Shown: positions 1 to 52,920 of the stretch, piece after piece
Numbering within the stretch: position 1 is the first letter of the stretch
How the letters are laid out: each line of letters starts with the position of its first letter
NCBI GenBank assembly: GCA_905235415.1
Contig: CAJOKX010000004.1
Location: forward strand, 1-52,920
Direction: 5' to 3'
DNA: 52,920 nt
Source of the DNA: an uncultured Lachnospiraceae bacterium
GTDB taxonomy: Bacteria > Bacillota > Clostridia > Lachnospirales > Lachnospiraceae
Program-made: the position numbers and the translations under genes
Notes under the pieces: model-generated
What the model was told of the DNA's origin: nothing
The model's database searches: none
Seen by the model: the letters and a program-made list of their open reading frames with translations, nothing else

Positions 1-129
1 CATGGAAGCGACCACGCTTCTATAGGAGCTGGGAATGGCTGCAATGCAACCGATGCAAAGCGCGGGTAGGCAACGTGTTTTCAGTGTGCCCACAAACTCG
101 AAGCAGAGTTGGCTGGCCTGTGAACTGTA
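1..129 (+). repeat. Interspersed palindromic element, copy A (right half only, truncated by window start)
   Basis: gaagcgaccacgcttctataggagctggg...gtgttttcagtgtgcccacaaactc...ggctggcctgtgaactgTA is nearly identical to the right half of the copy at 11436-11710. Confidence 0.9.
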
Positions 130-130
130 A
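35..130 (+). CDS. Putative 31-aa micro-ORF inside repeat copy A (MAAMQPMQSAGRQRVFSVPTNSKQSWLACEL)
   Basis: AGGAG at 24-28, 6-nt spacer, ATG at 35, TAA at 128-130; translation status unknown. Confidence 0.2.
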   Translation: MAAMQPMQSAGRQRVFSVPTNSKQSWLACEL

Positions 131-133
131 CTG

Positions 134-10929: not shown

Positions 10930-11334
10930 TCAGTTCTCCTTCCGGATGGTCAGTCTGAAGTCGAGGCTTCCCTCTTCCAGACCAAGCACCATCGCTTCGG
11001 CGGTTGCCATGTTCGTCGCGATCGGGATGCAGTAGCGGTCGCATTCCCTCGTGATCTCTATGATGTCAGGTTCATTCGGGCTCGACTTGATCGGATTATA
11101 GAAATAGATGACAAGATCCATCTGGTCTCTCTGGATCATATCGATAAACTGCTTTTCGCCGCCGACCGTTCCGGAAAGAAACTTGTGGACCTTGAGATTG
11201 GTCGCCTGTTCAATCCTGCGGCCGGTCATCTCGGTCGCATACAGATCATGCTTTGCCAGAATATACTTGTATGCCACGCAGAAATTCTCGATCAGATCCT
11301 TTCTGCTCCCAGAAGCAATAAACCCAATGTTCAT
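10930..11334 (-). CDS. mgsA: Methylglyoxal synthase
   Basis: MNIGFIASGSRKDLIENF, ATEMTGRRIEQATNL, DLVIYFYNPIKSSPNEPDI motifs. Confidence 0.9.
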   Translation of the reverse strand: MNIGFIASGSRKDLIENFCVAYKYILAKHDLYATEMTGRRIEQATNLKVHKFLSGTVGGEKQFIDMIQRDQMDLVIYFYNPIKSSPNEPDIIEITRECDRYCIPIATNMATAEAMVLGLEEGSLDFRLTIRKEN

Positions 11335-11435
11335 CAGCAGGCCTCCGTCCGATGCAGTGCCCAAAGTTGCTTTTATTTTAGCAAACTGCAGTGAAAAAGG
11401 AAAGAGGTCAAACCTCGCTCCCTCAAAAAAGACAT

Positions 11436-11710
11436 TACAGTTTCACAGACCAGCCTCCTACCTTCTGCATGGAGTTCTGTGGGCACAGCTGAAAACCATA
11501 GGCAGCCGACTGAGCTTTGCGAGTTGCTGCAGCCATGGTGCTGAACGTCCAGTGGACGTTCGTCCAGCACCGACCGGAACGGAGTGGAAGCGACCACGCT
11601 TCTATAGGAGCTGGAGCGGCTGCAATGCAACCGATGCAAAGCGCGGGCAGGCAACGTGTTTTCAGTGTGCCCACAAACTCTTAGCAGAGTTGGCTGGCCT
11701 GTGAACTGTA
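11436..11710 (+). repeat. Interspersed palindromic element, copy B (complete, about 275 bp, TA-flanked)
   Basis: Left end TACAGTTTCACAGACCAGCC mirrors right end GGCTGGCCTGTGAACTGTA; internal arm pairs ctgtgggcacagctgaaaac / gttttcagtgtgcccaca and gctttgcgagttgctgcagcc / ggctgcaatgcaaccgatgcaaagc; same sequence at both window edges. Confidence 0.93.
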
Positions 11711-11748
11711 AAAAAGACAGGACATCCTTTCTTCGGATGTCCTGCCCG
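11711..11748 (-). terminator. Rho-independent terminator of the PfkB-family kinase gene
   Basis: minus strand caggacatccgaagaaaggatgtcctg followed by a T-run; directly abuts repeat copy B. Confidence 0.85.
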
Positions 11749-11802
11749 TGCTTTCCTGTTATACCCCGCCGCCTGCCAAGGCGTGGAACTCCCCGGATGG
11801 GT

Positions 11803-12735
11803 TCATTTCTGACTGACCGTAATATCAATCTTCGCGGTGTGCATCATATGCTCAACCTGTCTTGCGTCCGGAATTACCAGGCTGAAGGAACTCGCCGCTC
11901 CCGCGCACATGCCTTCCTTAAAGGCAGTCTCCATATCTCCGTCCGAACCGACGTAGCCCGCGATAAATCCCGCGATCATGGAATCTCCCGCGCCGACCGT
12001 GCTGACGACATTGCCCTTGATGGCGTCCGAGCTGTAGATCGTTCCGTTCTCTGCAAGCAGAACCGCTCCGAGGCCGCCCATGCTGACCAGGACGTTGCGC
12101 GCCCCCATTTCCTGCAGCTTCTTCGCATAGGGGACCGCCTCCTCCAGGCTGTCAATCTGCACATCGAAGATCTCGCCCAGCTCCTCCCGGTTCGGCTTGA
12201 TCAGCCACGGATGATACGGAAGGGTTCCTGTCAGCAGATCCTTCTCCGCATCCACAACCACCTTCAGGCTGCGCCCTTCGAGGAACTGCAGAACCTGCTT
12301 ATACATATCCGACGGAAGCGTATCCGGAATATGGCCCGCCAGAACCAGGATGTCCCCGTCCACCAGGCATCTGAGCCTTGCGTAGAGGATTCCGATATCC
12401 TCATCCGTAATCTCGGGGCCCTGCCCGTTGATGGCCGTCTCTTCTTTGGAAATGATCTTCATATTGACACGGCTCATGCCCTTCTCCACCTGGATGAAGT
12501 TATTCCGGACGCCTATGCCGTGCAGCAGTCTCTTGATCTCCGCGCCGGTAAAGCCGGCGATAAATCCGAGCGCTGTATTGTCATACCCGAAGTTCTTCAG
12601 TGCAATGGATACATTGACGCCCTTTCCGCCGGGATAGATCTTCTCGGAGCTTGTCCTGTTGATGGCCCCTGTCTGGAAATCATCCACTTCAACGACATAA
12701 TCGAGCGTCGGGCTGAATGTGACGGTATAGATCAA
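11803..12735 (-). CDS. fruK: PfkB-family 1-phosphofructokinase
   Basis: TTG start (IYTVTFSPTLDYVVEVDDF), YPGGKGVNVSIALKNFG, TVGAGDSMIAGFIAGY PfkB signature; GGAGGA SD. Confidence 0.9.
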   Translation of the reverse strand: MIYTVTFSPTLDYVVEVDDFQTGAINRTSSEKIYPGGKGVNVSIALKNFGYDNTALGFIAGFTGAEIKRLLHGIGVRNNFIQVEKGMSRVNMKIISKEETAINGQGPEITDEDIGILYARLRCLVDGDILVLAGHIPDTLPSDMYKQVLQFLEGRSLKVVVDAEKDLLTGTLPYHPWLIKPNREELGEIFDVQIDSLEEAVPYAKKLQEMGARNVLVSMGGLGAVLLAENGTIYSSDAIKGNVVSTVGAGDSMIAGFIAGYVGSDGDMETAFKEGMCAGAASSFSLVIPDARQVEHMMHTAKIDITVSQK

Positions 12736-12781
12736 AACTGATTCCTCCTGGATAAAACTGTCCAATCCGAAAACATGGAAT

Positions 12782-12810
12782 AATATAGATAATCCTGCTG
12801 CCCTTGTCAA
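12782..12810 (-). promoter_or_regulatory. Predicted fruK promoter
   Basis: minus strand TTGACA (12805-12810), 17-bp spacer, TATATT (12782-12787). Confidence 0.75.
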
Positions 12811-12866
12811 GAAGATATGCATCCGGACGAATAAACGCCTTATATGCATCCGGGCGAATAAAACCC

Positions 12867-33233: not shown

Positions 33234-36200
33234 TTATTTGATCTTGATCTTATAGGTCGCTTTTTTGTTTGTGCCGTCAGTCGCCATGGCCGTGATCTTA
33301 ACAGTCTTCCCTTTCGCCCCGGCACTCGCAGTCACTTTTCCGCTGGTGCTTACCGTCGCCAACGCCGGGTTTGAGGAACTCCACAGCACTTTCTTGTTTG
33401 CTCCTTTCTTTGCGGTAACTTTCGCCTTCAGTTTAATGGTCTTTCCGGCTTTTACGGTTTTCTTTCCTGTGATTTTAACCTTCTTCACCGGATTCTTTGC
33501 AACTGTGATCGTCCAGGAAGCAGTCACTCCGCTTCCATCTTTCGCAGCCGCCGTAATTGTAACCTTTTTGCCCGCAGTTTTCTTTTTGATGATCTTTACA
33601 TTTCCTGATCCATCCACCGTCGCAATCTTTGGGTTGCTGGAGCTCCAGTGGATTGCCTTGTTTGAGGCATTCTTCGGGTAAATGTCCGCGCCCAGTTTCA
33701 ACCCCTTTCCGGGAGCAATTTTTGTTGACAATCCGGACAGGACGATACGGTTGACAGCAATCCTTCGTTTTCCGTTACCGGATCCGCCTCCGGAATCTTT
33801 ATCCGGACCGGGCTGCGGAGTATCTCCGCCACTCTGGCCTCCCGGATCTGAAACATGAATGGTACGGGATCTCTTAACACCCGCCACCTCTGCATACACC
33901 GTTCCATCTCCTGCCATCTCTGCAGCAATATAGACCTTTCCGTCATATGTATCATCTGACAGGACTCCATTGCTGCCGCACGACCACTGCAAAGGCAGGA
34001 TCACATTTTCAAACCGGGAGGGCTGTATGTTGTAGATGTACGGCGCGAACATGAATCCTACCGTCAGATAATCAGGCCCTCCGATCGAAAAGTCTGTAAT
34101 CGCAAACGGCTCTGCGGAAGAAGACAGATCTTCCACTTTGAATCCGTTACCGTTTACACTGCTGTCCGAACTTAGTGTGATCTTCAGGGCGCTGCCTTCC
34201 ACCAGAATGGTTCGTCCTCCCAGCTGTACGCCGGTCGCCGTCATTACTTCCGTCCAGGCCCCGTCCTGATATCCACTGATGATCAGGAAGTCATATCCAT
34301 CTTCTACCTCGGTATCCTCCGAGAAGGTTACAAGCATATAGGATGCACCCGGATCGCGGTAGATCCAGGATTCCTCCATATCATTACCATACTCCAGGCA
34401 TTCCAGATCCACGATGTCAGTAACCGTATGAACCGGATTGCCGTCTTCATCGACCTCCGGATCAGCGACAACAATCTTCACAGAAACGCTGACAGTACCC
34501 GCAGACACCGTGAGCGTTGTCTCACCCTGGGAGATTGCCTGAACCTTTCCGTCCTGCCCTGCCTCGGCAACCTGAGGATCCGCAGTTACCCACTCTACCG
34601 GGCTTTCCGCGGCCTCCTGCGGAAGAATCTCAACGCGGAAGGTTTTCGATGAACCGGTCGGAATCGAGATGGTCTCCCCATCTTCCACTTCCGTATCTCC
34701 CACATAGAGCGACAGGCTCTCCGGCTTCGGGATGAAATTCACATGTACCAGGCAGGACCGCAGGACACCTGTATCCTCCGACCTGGCGTAGATCCGGCAG
34801 GTTCCGGTGGCCAGGCCGGTCACCGTCCCGTTCTCATCCACCGTCGCGATGGATTCCTTCTGGCTGAACCAGGTAACAGCCTTGTTCTGTGCATCCTCCG
34901 GAAGCGTCTGGGCTTGCAGCGTGATCACAGGCTCTTCATCGGTCAATGTTACTTCTGTCTGGCTGAGTGAAACCGCCTGCACGCGCACATCCCTCTTTAT
35001 ATGGAACGCGACATCCCGGTTATGATCACCCGGAACAGCATCTCCATTCTTCAGACGAATCTGCAGGTTCAGATCCTCCACGCTGTCCCAGTCCACTCCG
35101 TTAACGCTGGTACTATACCCGGTCACTGCATCATGTCCCAGACCGGAGTAGGCAAAGGACTCATAGACCTTTCCTGTATCCGCATCTACGATCTCTACCG
35201 TATGTGCGGAGACTTCGTAGCCGGTATTCTGAATGGAAATATCCAGCAAACCTTTCTTTCCGAATATATTCTTGCGGACTGCAATATAGACAACCTCAGT
35301 CCCGATGTCCGCCATAGCAGATGCATCTGAATAGGAAGCGGAATTATCCGGATCCGTTACACGGATCGTCAGTTTTCTTGCGGTCAGTGTATCCGGAAGC
35401 GTAATCTCGTACTCTTTCATTACCGACGCGCCGGCCGAAAGTGTCTCCTCCACATCCTGAGACAGATACGTGATCCCCTCAGAATCGGTGATATCCACAT
35501 GATACCTGGACGCATCCGCCGTTCCCTCATTGCTCAGAACCGCTTCCACCGTGATCTTTGCTCCGGGAGCAACAGTGTAAGGATCCGTCAAAATGGAAGA
35601 AACCTTCAGGTGGGACGCGCTTCCGACATGTTTGCACAGCAGCTGGTTCGTCCCGATATAATCCCGCTTAGAGATGTCAACCGCTCTCTGATTGCAGGTG
35701 ACAAGAAGCTCGCCATTTACAAAGGCTGCCGATACGGACTCCACATAGTTTCCGGAACCGGAGGATGGTACGATCGCCACTTCCTCTGACCAGGAGTGTG
35801 TGGAAGCACTGTAGCGCCTCATATATGCACTGGATTCATTATCCCCGTTGCGGGTGTACAGCACAGCCATATCCCCGGAGGAAGGATCCGTCACGGTACT
35901 GCGGATCCGGCCGATAATCATACCACCGGCTTCTTCCTGCAGTCCCGTCAGGCTCTGCATCTGCACCAGTCCGCTCTCGGTATCGTTGACCAGCAGGATC
36001 TGCCCCTCCCCTGAAGGAACAAATACCGCAGAGGACGCGCTTCCGGAAAGCTGTGCAGCCGTTCCGTCTGCACAGATGGCTCTGCACACATGGCCCTGAT
36101 CGGACAGGCTGCTGTCTGTCTCCCCATACACAAATACCGGTTCCCCATCGATCTGTCCAAAGGAAACAAATGAGAATCCGCCATCAATATCCGCAGCCTT

Positions 36201-39200
36201 CTGCGTATTCCAGGTTCCTGTCTTCCTCACAAAATAAACACTGTTGGTCCCGGTTATGCACCACAGATCGCCCTCACTGTTCGCAACATATGATATCGCC
36301 GGGGCGCCGCCTGCGCCCGTCACACACAGCGCTGCCTCATAGGAATCGTTCTGCGTCAGATTCTCCGCATTCGCAAACCCTTCTCCCGTAAATTCGGCAA
36401 AGGCAGCTTCCGTACCTGCCATCACCTGCGTATAGCTCATGTTGGAAGAAATGCTTCCGGAAGCGTTGTTCCATACGACATAAGCCCTCTGTCCGTCCGA
36501 CCATACACTCGGCTGGAAATCTGCCGTACCGTCATCCCACACAGGGGCCGGATCTGTCCATTTCTTTGAAGACGCGCTGTAGATGCTGTACATCAGCGTG
36601 GACTTGTCATAGCTGTTTTCACGCGACGTGTCATCGCTCAGGAAAACCATCGCGGTCTGGCCGCCTGCCTGGAGCATAAGCGGAGCACTGTCCGGATATG
36701 CTTTCTGCTGCAGCGTAGACGCATTGGCGGAGGCTCCTTTCCAACTGGCGGTCAGAGCATTGTAGGCAGCCCTGTCATATGTGGAAAGCTCCTCCTGAGC
36801 AGCGCTCTGCAGGACTTCCTGCACGCTCTCATTCTCCGAAGGATCGGACGCTGCCTGCAGGCCGCTGGACTTGCGTTCTCCGGTATCGGGATCCAGATTC
36901 AGGAAATAATACGTATCTGACTTCAGCAGGGGCCAGTCAAGCACGGATCCGCCGGCAAGACGCGCGGAGACTCCTAACGTACCTTTCGCGTAGACCTGAT
37001 AGATGCCATTATATCCCTTATCCGTCAGAAACTGTGCCTTCGTTCCCATCACGGCCTGGCCGTACCCGCCTACTGAGAACACATTGGCGAGTCCGATTCC
37101 GCCATATCCGTTGATGGTTGCTTCCCCTTCCACGCCCAGCTTCTTAAATTTAAATTTCACGTCCTTCACGGACCAGTCTACATTGATTTCCGTTCCGGCG
37201 GAAAACTTTCCGCTGACATCAAATTCGAATACCATGAGATACGGCCCCTGTACCTCACCGCCTCCGCCGGCCTCCAGGACCACATAAAACTTCACGTCCG
37301 CATCTTTAGCGCCCCAGTCGTAGGTTCCGTATCCGAAAACATTTACGCCAAATTTGATCTTGCCGGTTGCCTCGCACTTCTTTTCCAGCTTCTCTTTCAG
37401 CGTCTCCCAGCCAAGAACATCCTCCCAGGCTTTCCCGCTGATCAGGGTTTTCAGCTCATATTCTTCCTTCCAGTTTTCCCGGATCCGTCCAAAGCCTTTC
37501 TTGTCTCCTTCATATTTCTCCTCTCCGCTGTATTCGAACAGATTTATCTTTATCTCCACTTTCTCCGAGGTAGTCTTGATACTCACAGGAGTGTTCAGAA
37601 ACGGAAGCGAAATCTTTGCACCGCCGAAAAATGGTGCGTCCTCCGGTACCGTGAAGCTGATTCCGTCCATGAGGGAGAACTCTGTCTTAACCGTAGATCC
37701 CTTCATGATGAGAAGGTGAATCTCCGTATCATGCTCCTCCCCGTTTTTGTCCACAACCCGCACATAGATGGGCCGGTCTTCCTTCTTCCGCAGACTCGTG
37801 ATCTTCTGCGTAACAGCAAACCTGGTCAGGGCAATCCTGTCAAATGTTCCGTCTTCAGAACGCTCGATCACGGTATCCTCCAGATCGTCCGCCGCATCCG
37901 GCTGAACAATCTCGTAGTGGTCTATCTGATCGCTGTCCGTCAGAAGCTTTACTTCAAACTTTGCTGCTGCTTCTTCGATCTCCCGGTCCAGCGTGATCTC
38001 CTCAGAGATCAGCTCATAACGGTATCCGGAATAGGTCATGATACAGGAGAGTACCGTATAGGGATCCGCAGATGCCTCATCAATGACTCGGAAGGTGAAC
38101 CGGCGGGTATCCGGCATGATAAACAGCTCATCCCTGTAGGTATAATAACCCTCCGTCTCCACCAGGATCCCCGTCCGTGGTTCGCTGCGTCCGTCATCCC
38201 CATCCACATAAGGCATCGTGACCGATCCCTCTTCTCCGGTCGTCATCACGACAGAATCCGCGCCTGTTCCGTATGTGACAATGGCTCCCTCTACCGGTTC
38301 GCCATCCTGATCCACCACCGTGATCTGACATTCGTTCTCTGCCATCTCTTTCTCCGGAGCCATATGGATCGTCACAAGATCCGTGACAGATCTGGGAACC
38401 GGATATCCCCAGCAGCATTTCGAATCGAATTTCCATACACGGTTGAAATCCCAGGTGATATAGGATGCCTCCTCCTTCATCAGGGACGTAATAAGGGGCC
38501 GGCTGGTAGAACAGTTATCTTCACTATTCGTATATTCATAGATTTTTCCGGACGGAACCAGTGCAATATCGAAATAACTGTAAAGAAGATTTCCTGTGTT
38601 GTAGCTGGTGATCGCTCCGGAGCGCGACACAGCGCCGGCGTTTTCCGCAACCATTCCGATATCATAACAGCGCTCGATGGTTCCTCCGTTTCTGCCGGCG
38701 ATGCCCCCTGAATACCCGTGAGTGGGAATATATCCATAGTCAAGGCTGTCCTCTATGGTTCCTTCGTTGCTTCCGGTTATCCCGCCGTTGCATGCCATGA
38801 CATCGTTGTTGTTGACATAAGCTTCATTGACACATTCGCGGATCGTCGTCCCGGAGCCCACGGTACCTGCTATTCCTCCGGCGTAGTAGCCGGATCTCAC
38901 ATCCATCTTGTTCACGCATGCTTCGATCGTCAGCTCCCCTCCGGACGCATCGCCCATGATTCCTCCGGCCTCGGTGGAGACTGCCCCGAGGAGAGTGCCC
39001 TCCGATACGCAGTGACGCACGGTCACCTTTCCTTTCACTCCATTATCCGAGAAATTCTGCAGGATGCCGCCCTTCGCGGCTTTCATGCCGGTTCCGTCCA
39101 TGGTTCCGCTGTATCTGCAGTCCTCGATCGTCGCTCCGCTTCCGCCGGTCGCGCTTTTTCCGTTTTCCTTTTGAAAGATAATGGTCTGTATGATACCACC

Positions 39201-41636
39201 CGCTCCGGAGCTTGCCCCGTTGGAGATATCCGCAGTAACGCTGCAGTCTCTCACGACGGCATTGCTTCCCTGCGCTCCGCATCGCAGCACCGCTGCGATG
39301 CCTCCAATCCTTGAGAAGTTTCGAATAACCCCTGTCACGTTGATACCGGAGATTGACAGAATAGCTCCCTCCCCGACAGAGGCCTGACCTGCCAGTACGC
39401 CGCAGGTACCTTTGTTATTGCCGGCAGGCGCTGCATCGGCGAATGTGACATCCTGCAGGTACATTCCCTCCCCGGCGCGCACAGATTTAAGATATCCGAA
39501 CAGTCCTGTTACGTCATAATCAGCAGATGGGACAAGTGATGAAATGGTATGGCCCTGTCCATTGAAGCTGCCTGTGAAAGGATGCTGAGATACTCCGATG
39601 GGCGTCCATTCCATGCCTCCCAGATCCAAATCCGCGTTCAGAATCACGGTGCAGCCGGTAAAGTCCACAGTCCCGTCATTTGTCACCTGTGCCACCCATG
39701 CAAGCTGTGATGCTTTGGATACGATATAATCCCTGCCGTTGGGTGTGATCTCCTCAACCTCTTCCCCATCCCAGGTATCCTCATCATCCGGCACTACATA
39801 CACAGATTCATCATATACGTCCACTGCAACAAAGTGGTATTCATTTTCCTCCGCGTACTGCTGGGCGTAGCTGTCTTCATATCCTTCTATCACGGAGGTT
39901 TTACTGTCGTTGCGGATCACCTGCTCTCCAATGGCGGTCACACTCTCCGGTATCCGGATCCGGAAAATATTGTCATTGTTGAAAGCTTTGGCGCCAATCT
40001 GAAGGATCGTATCGGGCAGCTCCACCCCGGTGACCGTCGGATGGGACGCATACGCGCTGGGGCCGATGATTCGTACGCTGTCGGGGATAACAGGCGTGAG
40101 CGTCCCGGAATTGAAAAGTTCCCCATAGAGGATCTGCTCATCCGTATCCAGGACCTGGCCGTTTTTGAAAGTGAAATGTCTGTTCTGCGGATCCACCACG
40201 ATCTCTTCCGTAACCCTGGCAAACAGGCAGGAGAAGGCGATCACATCGCTGTCGGAATCACTCACGCGATCCACATCCTTTCCGAGATTCAGTTTCCCGA
40301 TCTCTCCCGGGGTTCCGTTGATACCCCCTTCGATCGCAGTAATCCCATCTCCGATCTCTACATAATCCGCGCGGCCCTGATCATAATTTCCCAGTCTCAC
40401 AAGAGTGCTGCCTTCCCCGGACAGATATACAGATTTCAGGGAAGTACAGGAAGACGGTGCCTCATAATAGATCTCGCGCGAAACGCCGCTGATGCGCACT
40501 TCTTCCAGGGCAGAGCACCCCCTGATCATCGACATATAGGCATACTCCATGTCGGAGCCTTCAATTCTGATCTTCTTCAGGAAAGGATTGTCCAGAAATG
40601 CAACTGATTCAATCTCACTGATCCCGCTGAGTGTAAGCTCCTCTTTCGTGCAGTGCGGCGGCCACATGATCAGTTTTGTGTGCTCCTTGTTATACAGCTC
40701 GCCGTCCTGCCCGGTGCTGTAGTACGGAGACTCACTATCCACCTCGTATCGGGCGGCGGGAATCCGTGATCCGTATTCTTTATAACTTCTTGCATTCTTT
40801 CCAAATGCAAGCGTCTCAAACGCCGGACACTCTCCCACAAAACATTCCGCTAAATACTGATAAGCATCGATTGTGACTTTGGTGAGATTCTTAAGCTGGA
40901 AGAAGGCATCTTTCCGAAGAAACTGTACCGTACTCGGCAGGGTAACGGTATAGATAGCATCATTGTTCTGGAATGCCTTCGAAGCGATTTCAACCACCTT
41001 AAGGCCTGCGATTGTGGAGGGAACCACAACATCTCTGTCTGAACCGGTATATCCAGTGATCGTGACCTGGGAAGATGCTCTGGTGAAGACATAGTCGCCT
41101 TCCGTCTCTTCTGCAGAAGCCTGTGCCTCCAGGATATCTTCTCCTTCGGAATCAGCTTCAGTCTCTTCCTCTGCGTAAATATCTGCTATAAGATCAGAAT
41201 CTTCATTTATTCCGGATTCTGAATCACTCTGTGCAAAAGCATCCATAGGAAGCTCCGCATCCGGCAGACCATCTGACTCATCTGAGAAAAGATCCTCCCC
41301 GATTAAAAAAATGGAGTCCGAATCCGCTTCCTGATCTTCGAAAAGATCCTGCTCCGTCTCTTCCGCAGCAAGAAGAAGATCGGCGTCTGCCCCTTCCGTT
41401 CTGTCCGCAGATGCGTTCTCCGGATCATCCGCTTCTTGTACGGAAATAAAGTCTGCTGCTTCTGCATGCTCTTCAGAGGCAGCCGTCATCTGTACGTCCG
41501 GGAAGATTATTTCGTCCGCCCACTGTGCGCCGAGGGGCATCATTCCCTGCAGCATGATTGCAAAGGCACTCGCCAGTGCACACACACGTCTGAAGCTGTG
41601 TCTTGAATGACTGCTCTTTCTTTCTGATTTTCTCAT
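33234..41636 (-). CDS. Giant (about 2800 aa) secreted multidomain protein: BspA-type LRRs, GLUG-like repeats, propeller-like region, CARDB-like and Big2-like Ig domains
   Basis: N-term signal; ITGYTGSDRDVVVPSTIAGLKVVEIASKAFQNN (BspA LRR); GGITGSNEGTIEDSLDYGYIPTHGYSGGIAGRNGGTIERCYDIG (GLUG-like); VSLSQTEVTLTDEEPVITLQA...IATVDENGTVTGLATGT (Big2). Confidence 0.9.
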   Translation of the reverse strand: MRKSERKSSHSRHSFRRVCALASAFAIMLQGMMPLGAQWADEIIFPDVQMTAASEEHAEAADFISVQEADDPENASADRTEGADADLLLAAEETEQDLFEDQEADSDSIFLIGEDLFSDESDGLPDAELPMDAFAQSDSESGINEDSDLIADIYAEEETEADSEGEDILEAQASAEETEGDYVFTRASSQVTITGYTGSDRDVVVPSTIAGLKVVEIASKAFQNNDAIYTVTLPSTVQFLRKDAFFQLKNLTKVTIDAYQYLAECFVGECPAFETLAFGKNARSYKEYGSRIPAARYEVDSESPYYSTGQDGELYNKEHTKLIMWPPHCTKEELTLSGISEIESVAFLDNPFLKKIRIEGSDMEYAYMSMIRGCSALEEVRISGVSREIYYEAPSSCTSLKSVYLSGEGSTLVRLGNYDQGRADYVEIGDGITAIEGGINGTPGEIGKLNLGKDVDRVSDSDSDVIAFSCLFARVTEEIVVDPQNRHFTFKNGQVLDTDEQILYGELFNSGTLTPVIPDSVRIIGPSAYASHPTVTGVELPDTILQIGAKAFNNDNIFRIRIPESVTAIGEQVIRNDSKTSVIEGYEDSYAQQYAEENEYHFVAVDVYDESVYVVPDDEDTWDGEEVEEITPNGRDYIVSKASQLAWVAQVTNDGTVDFTGCTVILNADLDLGGMEWTPIGVSQHPFTGSFNGQGHTISSLVPSADYDVTGLFGYLKSVRAGEGMYLQDVTFADAAPAGNNKGTCGVLAGQASVGEGAILSISGINVTGVIRNFSRIGGIAAVLRCGAQGSNAVVRDCSVTADISNGASSGAGGIIQTIIFQKENGKSATGGSGATIEDCRYSGTMDGTGMKAAKGGILQNFSDNGVKGKVTVRHCVSEGTLLGAVSTEAGGIMGDASGGELTIEACVNKMDVRSGYYAGGIAGTVGSGTTIRECVNEAYVNNNDVMACNGGITGSNEGTIEDSLDYGYIPTHGYSGGIAGRNGGTIERCYDIGMVAENAGAVSRSGAITSYNTGNLLYSYFDIALVPSGKIYEYTNSEDNCSTSRPLITSLMKEEASYITWDFNRVWKFDSKCCWGYPVPRSVTDLVTIHMAPEKEMAENECQITVVDQDGEPVEGAIVTYGTGADSVVMTTGEEGSVTMPYVDGDDGRSEPRTGILVETEGYYTYRDELFIMPDTRRFTFRVIDEASADPYTVLSCIMTYSGYRYELISEEITLDREIEEAAAKFEVKLLTDSDQIDHYEIVQPDAADDLEDTVIERSEDGTFDRIALTRFAVTQKITSLRKKEDRPIYVRVVDKNGEEHDTEIHLLIMKGSTVKTEFSLMDGISFTVPEDAPFFGGAKISLPFLNTPVSIKTTSEKVEIKINLFEYSGEEKYEGDKKGFGRIRENWKEEYELKTLISGKAWEDVLGWETLKEKLEKKCEATGKIKFGVNVFGYGTYDWGAKDADVKFYVVLEAGGGGEVQGPYLMVFEFDVSGKFSAGTEINVDWSVKDVKFKFKKLGVEGEATINGYGGIGLANVFSVGGYGQAVMGTKAQFLTDKGYNGIYQVYAKGTLGVSARLAGGSVLDWPLLKSDTYYFLNLDPDTGERKSSGLQAASDPSENESVQEVLQSAAQEELSTYDRAAYNALTASWKGASANASTLQQKAYPDSAPLMLQAGGQTAMVFLSDDTSRENSYDKSTLMYSIYSASSKKWTDPAPVWDDGTADFQPSVWSDGQRAYVVWNNASGSISSNMSYTQVMAGTEAAFAEFTGEGFANAENLTQNDSYEAALCVTGAGGAPAISYVANSEGDLWCITGTNSVYFVRKTGTWNTQKAADIDGGFSFVSFGQIDGEPVFVYGETDSSLSDQGHVCRAICADGTAAQLSGSASSAVFVPSGEGQILLVNDTESGLVQMQSLTGLQEEAGGMIIGRIRSTVTDPSSGDMAVLYTRNGDNESSAYMRRYSASTHSWSEEVAIVPSSGSGNYVESVSAAFVNGELLVTCNQRAVDISKRDYIGTNQLLCKHVGSASHLKVSSILTDPYTVAPGAKITVEAVLSNEGTADASRYHVDITDSEGITYLSQDVEETLSAGASVMKEYEITLPDTLTARKLTIRVTDPDNSASYSDASAMADIGTEVVYIAVRKNIFGKKGLLDISIQNTGYEVSAHTVEIVDADTGKVYESFAYSGLGHDAVTGYSTSVNGVDWDSVEDLNLQIRLKNGDAVPGDHNRDVAFHIKRDVRVQAVSLSQTEVTLTDEEPVITLQAQTLPEDAQNKAVTWFSQKESIATVDENGTVTGLATGTCRIYARSEDTGVLRSCLVHVNFIPKPESLSLYVGDTEVEDGETISIPTGSSKTFRVEILPQEAAESPVEWVTADPQVAEAGQDGKVQAISQGETTLTVSAGTVSVSVKIVVADPEVDEDGNPVHTVTDIVDLECLEYGNDMEESWIYRDPGASYMLVTFSEDTEVEDGYDFLIISGYQDGAWTEVMTATGVQLGGRTILVEGSALKITLSSDSSVNGNGFKVEDLSSSAEPFAITDFSIGGPDYLTVGFMFAPYIYNIQPSRFENVILPLQWSCGSNGVLSDDTYDGKVYIAAEMAGDGTVYAEVAGVKRSRTIHVSDPGGQSGGDTPQPGPDKDSGGGSGNGKRRIAVNRIVLSGLSTKIAPGKGLKLGADIYPKNASNKAIHWSSSNPKIATVDGSGNVKIIKKKTAGKKVTITAAAKDGSGVTASWTITVAKNPVKKVKITGKKTVKAGKTIKLKAKVTAKKGANKKVLWSSSNPALATVSTSGKVTASAGAKGKTVKITAMATDGTNKKATYKIKIK

Positions 41637-41823
41637 ACGGAACCTCCCAACCTTCAGACAGTGTGATCTTGCCATGTCCTCGTGTGTACTGCCTGTATAC
41701 ATGAATAGCTCTATTTTTCATTTTGCAGAATCAGGTTTGCGCTGTCAACTCTCTGCACACATAAAGATGTATATTTCTCCAATCGGTCTGAAACATCTCC
41801 GCTCCTGCCTCTGTTTTCCAATT

Positions 41824-41856: not shown

Positions 41857-41862
41857 CATAAA

Positions 41863-42235
41863 ATAAAGCGGGACGATAAGCCGGGTTATGTCGCGGACGG
41901 CCATCTATCCAGGCCGGCTGTTGCCAGCCGGCTCAAGCGACCTACCTGGAACTGACGGGCAGCCATATGTTCCTGTGCGGTCTTGCTTCGGATGGGGTTT
42001 ACATATGCCCCGCCCGTTACCGGGCGGGCGGTAGTCTCTTGCACTGCCCTTCCACCCTTACCGCCGGTTCAGAATCCGCTAAAGCGGTTCCGGGACCGGA
42101 GGCGGTTCATTTCTGTTGCACTGTCCCTGGAGTCACCTCCGCCGGACGTTATCCGGCATCCTGCCCTGTGAAGCCCGGACTTTCCTCTCCCGGACCCTTT
42201 CGTCTGTCCGGCAGCGGCCGTCTGTCCCACTTCGA
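41863..42235 (-). ncRNA. rnpB: RNase P RNA
   Basis: minus strand GAGGAAAGTCCGGGCTTCACAGGGCAGGATGCC, GGTAAGGGTGGAAGGGCAGTGCAAGAGACTACCGCC, 3' CCGGCTTATCGTCCCGC; P1 pairing gaagtgggac/gtcccgcttt. Confidence 0.95.
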
Positions 42236-52720: not shown

Positions 52721-52920
52721 TAAAGTTCACAGGCCAGCCTCCGACCTTCTGCATGGAGTTCTGTGGGCACAACTGAAAACCATAGGCAGCCGACTGAGCT
52801 TTGCGAGTTGCTGCAGCCTCGGGTGCTGAACGTCCAGTGGACGTTCGTCCAGCACCGACCGGAACGGAGTGGAGAAGCGACCACGCTTCTATAGGAGCTG
52901 GGAGTGGCTGCAATGCAACC
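52721..52920 (+). repeat. Interspersed palindromic element, copy C (left part, truncated by window end)
   Basis: TAAAGTTCACAGGCCAGCCTCCGACCTTCTGCATGGAGTTCTGTGGGCACA... matches copy B from its left end, including the gaacgtccagtggacgttcgtccagc hairpin. Confidence 0.92.

What the first reader, a model, noticed from the sequence alone, without database searches (positions are those of the whole stretch)
11436..11710. 275-bp TA-flanked, full-length palindromic interspersed element, three same-orientation copies in 53 kb
The complete copy starts TACAGTTTCACAGACCAGCC and ends GGCTGGCCTGTGAACTGTA. The inverted symmetry continues inward: ctgtgggcacagctgaaaac pairs with gttttcagtgtgcccaca, and gctttgcgagttgctgcagcc pairs with ggctgcaatgcaaccgatgcaaagc. 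The centre holds separate hairpins (gctg-aacgtccagtggacgtt-cgtc-cagc; gaagcg-acca-cgcttc). Copies at 1-129 and 52721-52920 are highly similar. TA at every visible terminus suggests a mariner/IS630-type MITE (inference). The conserved central hairpins and the absence of any transposase here leave open a structured-RNA role.
Basis: partly seen in the sequence, partly recalled or inferred. Interest (0 to 1): 0.75.

Follow-up and report, generated by a model that had tools for sequence, protein, structure and literature searches.

The report
Nested jumping palindrome with RNA-like core
The 275-base palindrome is one of roughly 80 copies of a small jumping DNA element in a rumen-type Lachnospiraceae genome, and it carries inside it a strongly folded, RNA-like core that also occurs on its own in many related bacteria and matches no family in the Rfam library.

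Summary
The window is one contig of a 174-contig, 2.54-Mb Lachnospiraceae assembly. The element's end matches 152 places there (about 80 copies), and contigs break inside it, so the two edge copies are contig ends. The "TA = mariner/IS630" reading fails: the ends are GTTACAGTTCAC...GTGAACTGTAAC, insertion duplicates exactly 8 bp (flank identity 0.78 at length 8 in 26 copies; 0.26 for mispaired flanks), and IS630 transposase is absent. IS66-type insertion sequences in related genomes share both traits, so the best reading is an IS66-type MITE moved in trans; no IS66 transposase is in this assembly.

The interior is the surprise. Without the ends it is a stand-alone ~130-nt repeat in other species of the genus and in 10 of 297 other genera sampled. 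It folds as one long hairpin: 34 of 36 pairs show compensatory changes across 44 sequences, with no Rfam match. Most stand-alone copies are clamped by a locus-specific inverted repeat (perfect runs up to 28 bp). A 52-nt hairpin in the 275-bp form is a third independent repeat. Function and mobiliser of the core are unknown; compensatory changes could reflect RNA selection or templated palindrome repair.

The parts
11426..11433 (.). left copy of the 8-bp target site duplication, AAAAAGAC
   Evidence: sequence; 8-bp rule from 26 copies
11434..11455 (+). left terminal inverted repeat (AT)TACAGTTTCACAGACCAGCC; family consensus GTTACAGTTCACAGGCCAGCC, here with GT>AT and one extra T
11489..11668 (+). 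structured core (model R1, positions 1-132, interrupted by the 52-nt module); occurs stand-alone in other species and genera
   Evidence: 91 bits, E 1.4e-26
11537..11588 (+). 52-nt hairpin module GGTGCTGAACGTCCAGTGGACGTTCGTCCAGCACCGACCGGAACGGAGTGGA, an independent dispersed repeat inserted in the core
11692..11710 (+). right terminal inverted repeat GGCTGGCCTGTGAACTGTA
11711..11718 (.). right copy of the 8-bp target site duplication, AAAAAGAC
1..131 (+). right part of another copy, cut by the contig start
52719..52920 (+). left part of another copy (with the 52-nt module), cut by the contig end

Best explanation
The feature is a non-autonomous transposable element (MITE) of a Lachnospiraceae species. 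Inferred mechanism: an IS66-type transposase, supplied in trans, recognises the terminal inverted repeats GTTACAGTTCAC...GTGAACTGTAAC, moves the 230- or 280-bp unit and inserts it mostly between genes, duplicating 8 bp of target. The element's body is not degenerate transposase DNA. It is a captured copy of an independent hairpin repeat (the structured core), which in the long form has itself received a 52-nt REP-like hairpin. Shown: copy number, ends, 8-bp duplication, syntenic sites lacking the element, nesting, independent existence of core and module, covariation. Inferred: the IS66 transposase as mobiliser, capture as the origin, and lack of a cellular function of the MITE itself.
For: About 80 copies in the own genome and about 20 or more in a congener, G018 (= RUG11089). 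8-bp duplication: mean identity 0.78 over 26 copies at length 8, against 0.24-0.33 at other lengths and 0.26 for mispaired flanks; 14 of 26 at 7/8 or better against 0 of 650 (two copies entered with an end shifted by 1-2 nt, without them 12 of 24). Two G018 insertions (L093, L080) are absent from syntenic intergenic regions of the own genome. 15 of 66 junctions fall in a called ORF, against 91% of the sequence. IS66-type elements with the matching end GTTACTRTTCA: L202 (G006, 2293 bp), L203 (G003, 1998 bp, exact 8-bp duplication TTCGAGCC), L327 (G024, 2207 bp), plus one matching end in L328-L330. Published IS66 elements ISPpa5a and ISPpa7 also make 8-bp duplications (PMC3281130). Nesting and core.
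Against: No IS66 transposase (PF03050) or its accessory protein was found in the own genome assembly; a repeated gene may be lost from a fragmented assembly. End identity to the IS66 elements is 14-15 of 21 (10-11 of the first 12), so the transposase match is by motif and duplication length, not by a full sequence match. L327 shows no clear duplication. One copy (L102) is flanked by a perfect inverted repeat instead of a direct one.
Confidence: 0.8

Rival explanations
1. Mariner/IS630-type MITE: moved by a DDE transposase that duplicates TA.
For: TA next to both ends in most copies.
Against: TA lies inside the inverted repeat (GT-TA..TA-AC) and an 8-bp duplication lies outside it; no PF13358 match in the genome.
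Confidence: 0.03
2. The element, or its core, is a functional structured RNA kept by selection in each copy (for example a regulatory or processing RNA), and its dispersal is secondary.
For: Stand-alone core in 10 other genera; 94.9% of cells paired, 34 of 36 pairs with compensatory changes, covariation score 0.557 against 0.161 shuffled and at most 0.07 slid. Several unpaired positions are nearly invariant across genera.
Against: Unpaired columns are no more conserved than paired ones (0.72 against 0.75). At several syntenic loci the own genome lacks the stand-alone core. No expression data. Template switching in palindromes can create compensatory changes (PMC8794818).
Confidence: 0.25
3. 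The paired changes are a mutational by-product: hairpin-templated repair or replication copies a mutation from one arm to the other, so covariation says nothing about function.
For: Individual G018 copies carry matched changes in both arms, including the transposase ends: 12 matched against 0.9 expected. Some are transversion pairs without a G-U intermediate. Published precedent: PMC8794818 and PMC3820800.
Against: It does not by itself explain near-invariant unpaired positions across genera or the nearly constant core length.
Confidence: 0.4
4. The unit is a large intrinsic transcription terminator or a loop inserted into terminator hairpins.
For: Some copies adjoin a terminator (window, about 11719-11750) and stand-alone copy L378 has a T-run after its basal stem.
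Against: T content after the basal stem of stand-alone copies equals background (0.25 against 0.28); MITE junctions face gene starts as often as gene ends (39 against 27).
Confidence: 0.07

Closest known systems
IS66 family insertion sequences (Pfam PF03050) and their non-autonomous derivatives
   Same: 8-bp target duplication; inverted ends; three IS66-type elements in this family of bacteria carry GTTACTRTTCA ends close to the MITE's GTTACAGTTCA.
   Different: One conventional IS66 found here (L334) ends in GTAAGCG, not GTTAC; the MITE has no transposase remnant, and none is in the own assembly.
REP / BIME-type palindromic repeats
   Same: Dispersed intergenic hairpins; the 52-nt module resembles a REP in size and form and one copy sits between tnpA (Y1) and an apparent tnpB in L346.
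   Different: Inverted ends and 8-bp duplications of the MITE are not REP features; no pairing of the module with a RAYT gene beyond that single case was shown.
Rfam structured RNA families (release 15)
   Same: The core behaves like a structured RNA family: conserved length, fold and covariation across genera.
   Different: No family reached threshold, and relaxed searches gave only implausible chance hits.

Membership tests
Tc1/mariner-IS630 MITE | TA target duplication | tested here: not met
   8-bp duplication outside GT-TA...TA-AC
Tc1/mariner-IS630 MITE | cognate DDE_3 transposase in the genome | tested here: not met
   no PF13358 match
MITE (any family) | short, non-coding, inverted ends, multicopy, target duplication | tested here: met
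MITE (any family) | orthologous sites without the element | tested here: met
   L093 and L080 against the own genome: flanking genes adjacent, element absent; intergenic divergence prevents a base-exact empty site
IS66-type MITE | 8-bp target duplication | tested here: met
   published IS66 examples in PMC3281130
IS66-type MITE | terminal repeats shared with an IS66 element | tested here: inconclusive
   10-11 of the first 12 bases shared with three IS66-type elements, 14-15 of 21 overall
IS66-type MITE | mobilising transposase in the same genome | tested here: not met
   no PF03050 or accessory protein in the assembly; assembly is fragmented at repeats. Presence in the same genome is usual for active MITEs but not required
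Rfam family | match at the gathering score | tested here: not met
Structured RNA | covariation beyond controls | tested here: met
   confounded by possible templated palindrome repair
Structured RNA | transcription and phenotype | not testable with these tools
   no RNA-seq or genetics available
Intrinsic terminator | U-tract after the hairpin | tested here: not met
   T fraction 0.25 against background 0.28 after basal stems of stand-alone copies

The most novel reading that the evidence does not exclude
The stand-alone core is a new class of mobile structured RNA or hairpin element of Lachnospiraceae. Its roughly 125-nt core is conserved in fold across genera, and each copy comes to lie inside a locus-specific inverted repeat (perfect runs up to 28 bp), either because it inserts into hairpins or because its spread copies flanking DNA in inverse orientation. 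Here it has been captured by an IS66-type MITE and amplified about 80-fold.
Probability: 0.35. Interest if true: 0.8.

Novelty: new variant of a known kind. Interest (0 to 1): 0.6.

Why it matters
If right, one short sequence shows three layers of mobile palindromes, and the middle layer is a widespread hairpin family that Rfam does not hold and that sits in locus-specific inverted repeats, a pattern for which I know no established mechanism. The data set (individually diverged copies with matched arm changes) also makes a general question testable: does covariation in bacterial hairpin repeats reflect RNA function or templated repair? Practically, this MITE breaks the assembly of its host at about half of the contig starts examined.

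Tried and rejected
IS630 transposase search: none. First genome contigs pattern scan: nothing; the degenerate one mostly hit chance matches outside Lachnospiraceae. Phages and plasmids: no match; viral contigs: none for the exact end. Terminator hypothesis: no T-run enrichment, no gene-end preference. Search for base-exact empty sites of stand-alone cores in the own genome failed because intergenic DNA is too diverged, so insertion into pre-existing hairpins and copying of flanks could not be separated. Literature: no hit for the module sequence or for MITEs of Lachnospiraceae; only open-licence papers were searchable.

Full report
Setting. The window is contig C4 of a 2.54-Mb, 174-contig assembly. 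The closest genome carrying the element, G018, matches RUG11089, an uncultured Lachnospiraceae bacterium (contig numbers, lengths and coordinates agree). The complete window copy lies between a gene matching 1-phosphofructokinase (11803-12849, minus strand) and a gene with an MGS domain that resembles methylglyoxal synthase (10930-11364, minus strand).

Observation. The palindrome is real: folding energy -146.6 kcal/mol (+) and -146.8 (-), z about -10. The terminal 19-mer has 152 matches at up to 3 mismatches in the genome and none for the reversed control. In the 1.47 Mb fetched, 69 element pieces were found: 38 at contig starts, 17 at contig ends, 14 internal. The two "copies" at the window edges are therefore contig ends. 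I estimate about 80 copies; this is an inference from the terminus count.

Ends and duplication. Aligning copies with flanks shows GT before TACAG and AC after CTGTA in most. Outside these lies a direct repeat of exactly 8 bp. Over 26 copies the mean identity of the two flanks is 0.78 at length 8, but 0.24-0.33 at every other length from 4 to 12; mispaired flanks give 0.26; 14 of 26 reach 7/8, 0 of 650 mispaired. The flank strings of the window copy and of L108 were set by hand with a 1-2 nt shift of one end; without them it is 12 of 24. Examples: L078 actgcctg, L095 cgtgagta, L100 atagcagc, L083 gattgatg. This excludes a TA-duplicating transposase, and no PF13358 protein is encoded.

Empty sites and location. 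For G018 copies L093 and L080 both flanking genes have neighbouring orthologues in the own genome and the element is missing between them. The alignments are through diverged intergenic DNA, so they show absence of the element, not a base-exact empty site. Only 15 of 66 junction points fall in a called ORF, while the same crude caller marks 91% of the sequence as coding.

Which transposase. Among relatives, IS66-type transposases (PF03050) were found in 8 of 31 genomes, not in the own one. Three complete IS66-type elements have ends like the MITE's: G006 GTTACTGTTCACACC (2293 bp, at a contig start), G003 GTTACTATTCACAG with the exact duplication TTCGAGCC (1998 bp), and G024 GTTACTGTTCAGTG (2207 bp). 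Three further loci (L328, L329, L330) with the same accessory ORF have one such end 91-178 bp before it. The accessory ORF (99-128 aa) has no Pfam match. A conventional IS66 from the same order (L334) has GTAAGCG ends. So IS66-type mobilisation in trans is the best-supported inference, but the own genome's assembly holds no such gene.

Nesting, layer 2. A genus-wide search with the 230-bp form found matches covering only query positions about 55-190, without the ends, in G002, G005, G007, G008, G009 and G016, and also in G018 (sequences). A covariance model (R1) built from ten stand-alone copies finds the window copy (11489-11668, 91 bits) and matches in 10 of the 297 other genera sampled, mostly several per genome. 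In the own genome the R1 matches coincide with MITE copies as far as I compared them. Across 44 distinct sequences 94.9% of cells pair, 34 of 36 pairs have compensatory changes, and the covariation score is 0.557 against 0.161 for shuffles and at most 0.07 for slid partners (that alignment was fitted to the model, which favours it). RNAalifold on the unfitted alignment of ten gave 16 of 36 such pairs. Rfam has no match.

Basal stems. Stand-alone cores are bounded by an inverted repeat specific to the locus. The longest perfect run next to the core has median 10 bp (maximum 28) over 35 copies, against median 3 (maximum 9) when flanks of different genomes are paired. Some copies, for example in G230 and G095, have only short perfect runs but long imperfect ones. 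Arms are not alike between genomes (28% identity). Two copies in G016 (L373, L382) have identical cores in different palindromes. No T-run follows. At loci such as L389, L377, L375 and L374 the own genome has both neighbours but no core between them. How the arms arise is unexplained.

Nesting, layer 3. The 52-nt hairpin at 11537-11588 is missing from 226-230-bp copies. It occurs alone or in other contexts in about 30 other genera (one search lists 32 of 248 other genera, but a few of those matches fall on other parts of the query, for example L236, so this is a slight overcount). In 25 aligned copies 9 of 14 pairs show compensatory changes. In G183 (L346) it lies between a Y1 tnpA and what reads as a tnpB start (the tnpB identification is my reading of the sequence).

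Paired changes. Within G018, 12 left-arm changes are matched by a pairing change in the right arm (0.9 expected by chance placement); in the own genome 4 (0.5 expected). This extends to the transposase ends. Either pairing is selected, or the palindrome is repaired from its own other arm; template switching of this kind has been described (PMC8794818, PMC3820800). Paired and unpaired columns of the core are about equally conserved (0.75, 0.72), which does not decide.

Verdict. The feature given is an IS66-type MITE (MITE very likely; IS66 type likely). The novel part is its cargo, the stand-alone core with locus-specific basal stems, for which I can show the structure and distribution but not the function.

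Noticed in passing
L346 (G183:C44), around locus position 1730-1800: The 52-nt hairpin module sits between a Y1 transposase gene (tnpA) and an apparent tnpB start, a possible origin or mobiliser of the module.
   Followed up: partly
L392 (G354:C31:4781-5561): Four tandem copies of the structured core spaced about 215 bp apart.
   Followed up: no
L102 (G000:C115:6514-6743): A MITE copy flanked by a perfect 20-bp inverted repeat instead of the 8-bp direct duplication, like the stand-alone cores; it is near a contig end, so an assembly artefact is possible.
   Followed up: no
L057 (G021), L116, L149 (Schaedlerella): Tiny 34-37-bp palindromes made only of GTTACWGTTCAC-like ends face to face; L135 (hRUG869) has 153- and 174-bp elements with the same ends and other interiors. 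Suggests a broad GTTAC-ended MITE superfamily in Lachnospiraceae.
   Followed up: partly
A1 alignment columns 22-24 and 244-246 (G018 copies L074-L093): The two or three bases just inside the inverted repeats are almost random among G018 copies while the core is nearly constant.
   Followed up: no
L202 1787-2083 (minus) and L203 300-683: Accessory ORF (99-128 aa) of the IS66-type elements, found in 10 of 116 relatives but without Pfam match.
   Followed up: partly
window 33234-41702: A 2822-aa open reading frame on the minus strand, not examined.
   Followed up: no
window 41861-42233: Bacterial RNase P RNA class A (Rfam RF00010), an ordinary landmark.
   Followed up: no
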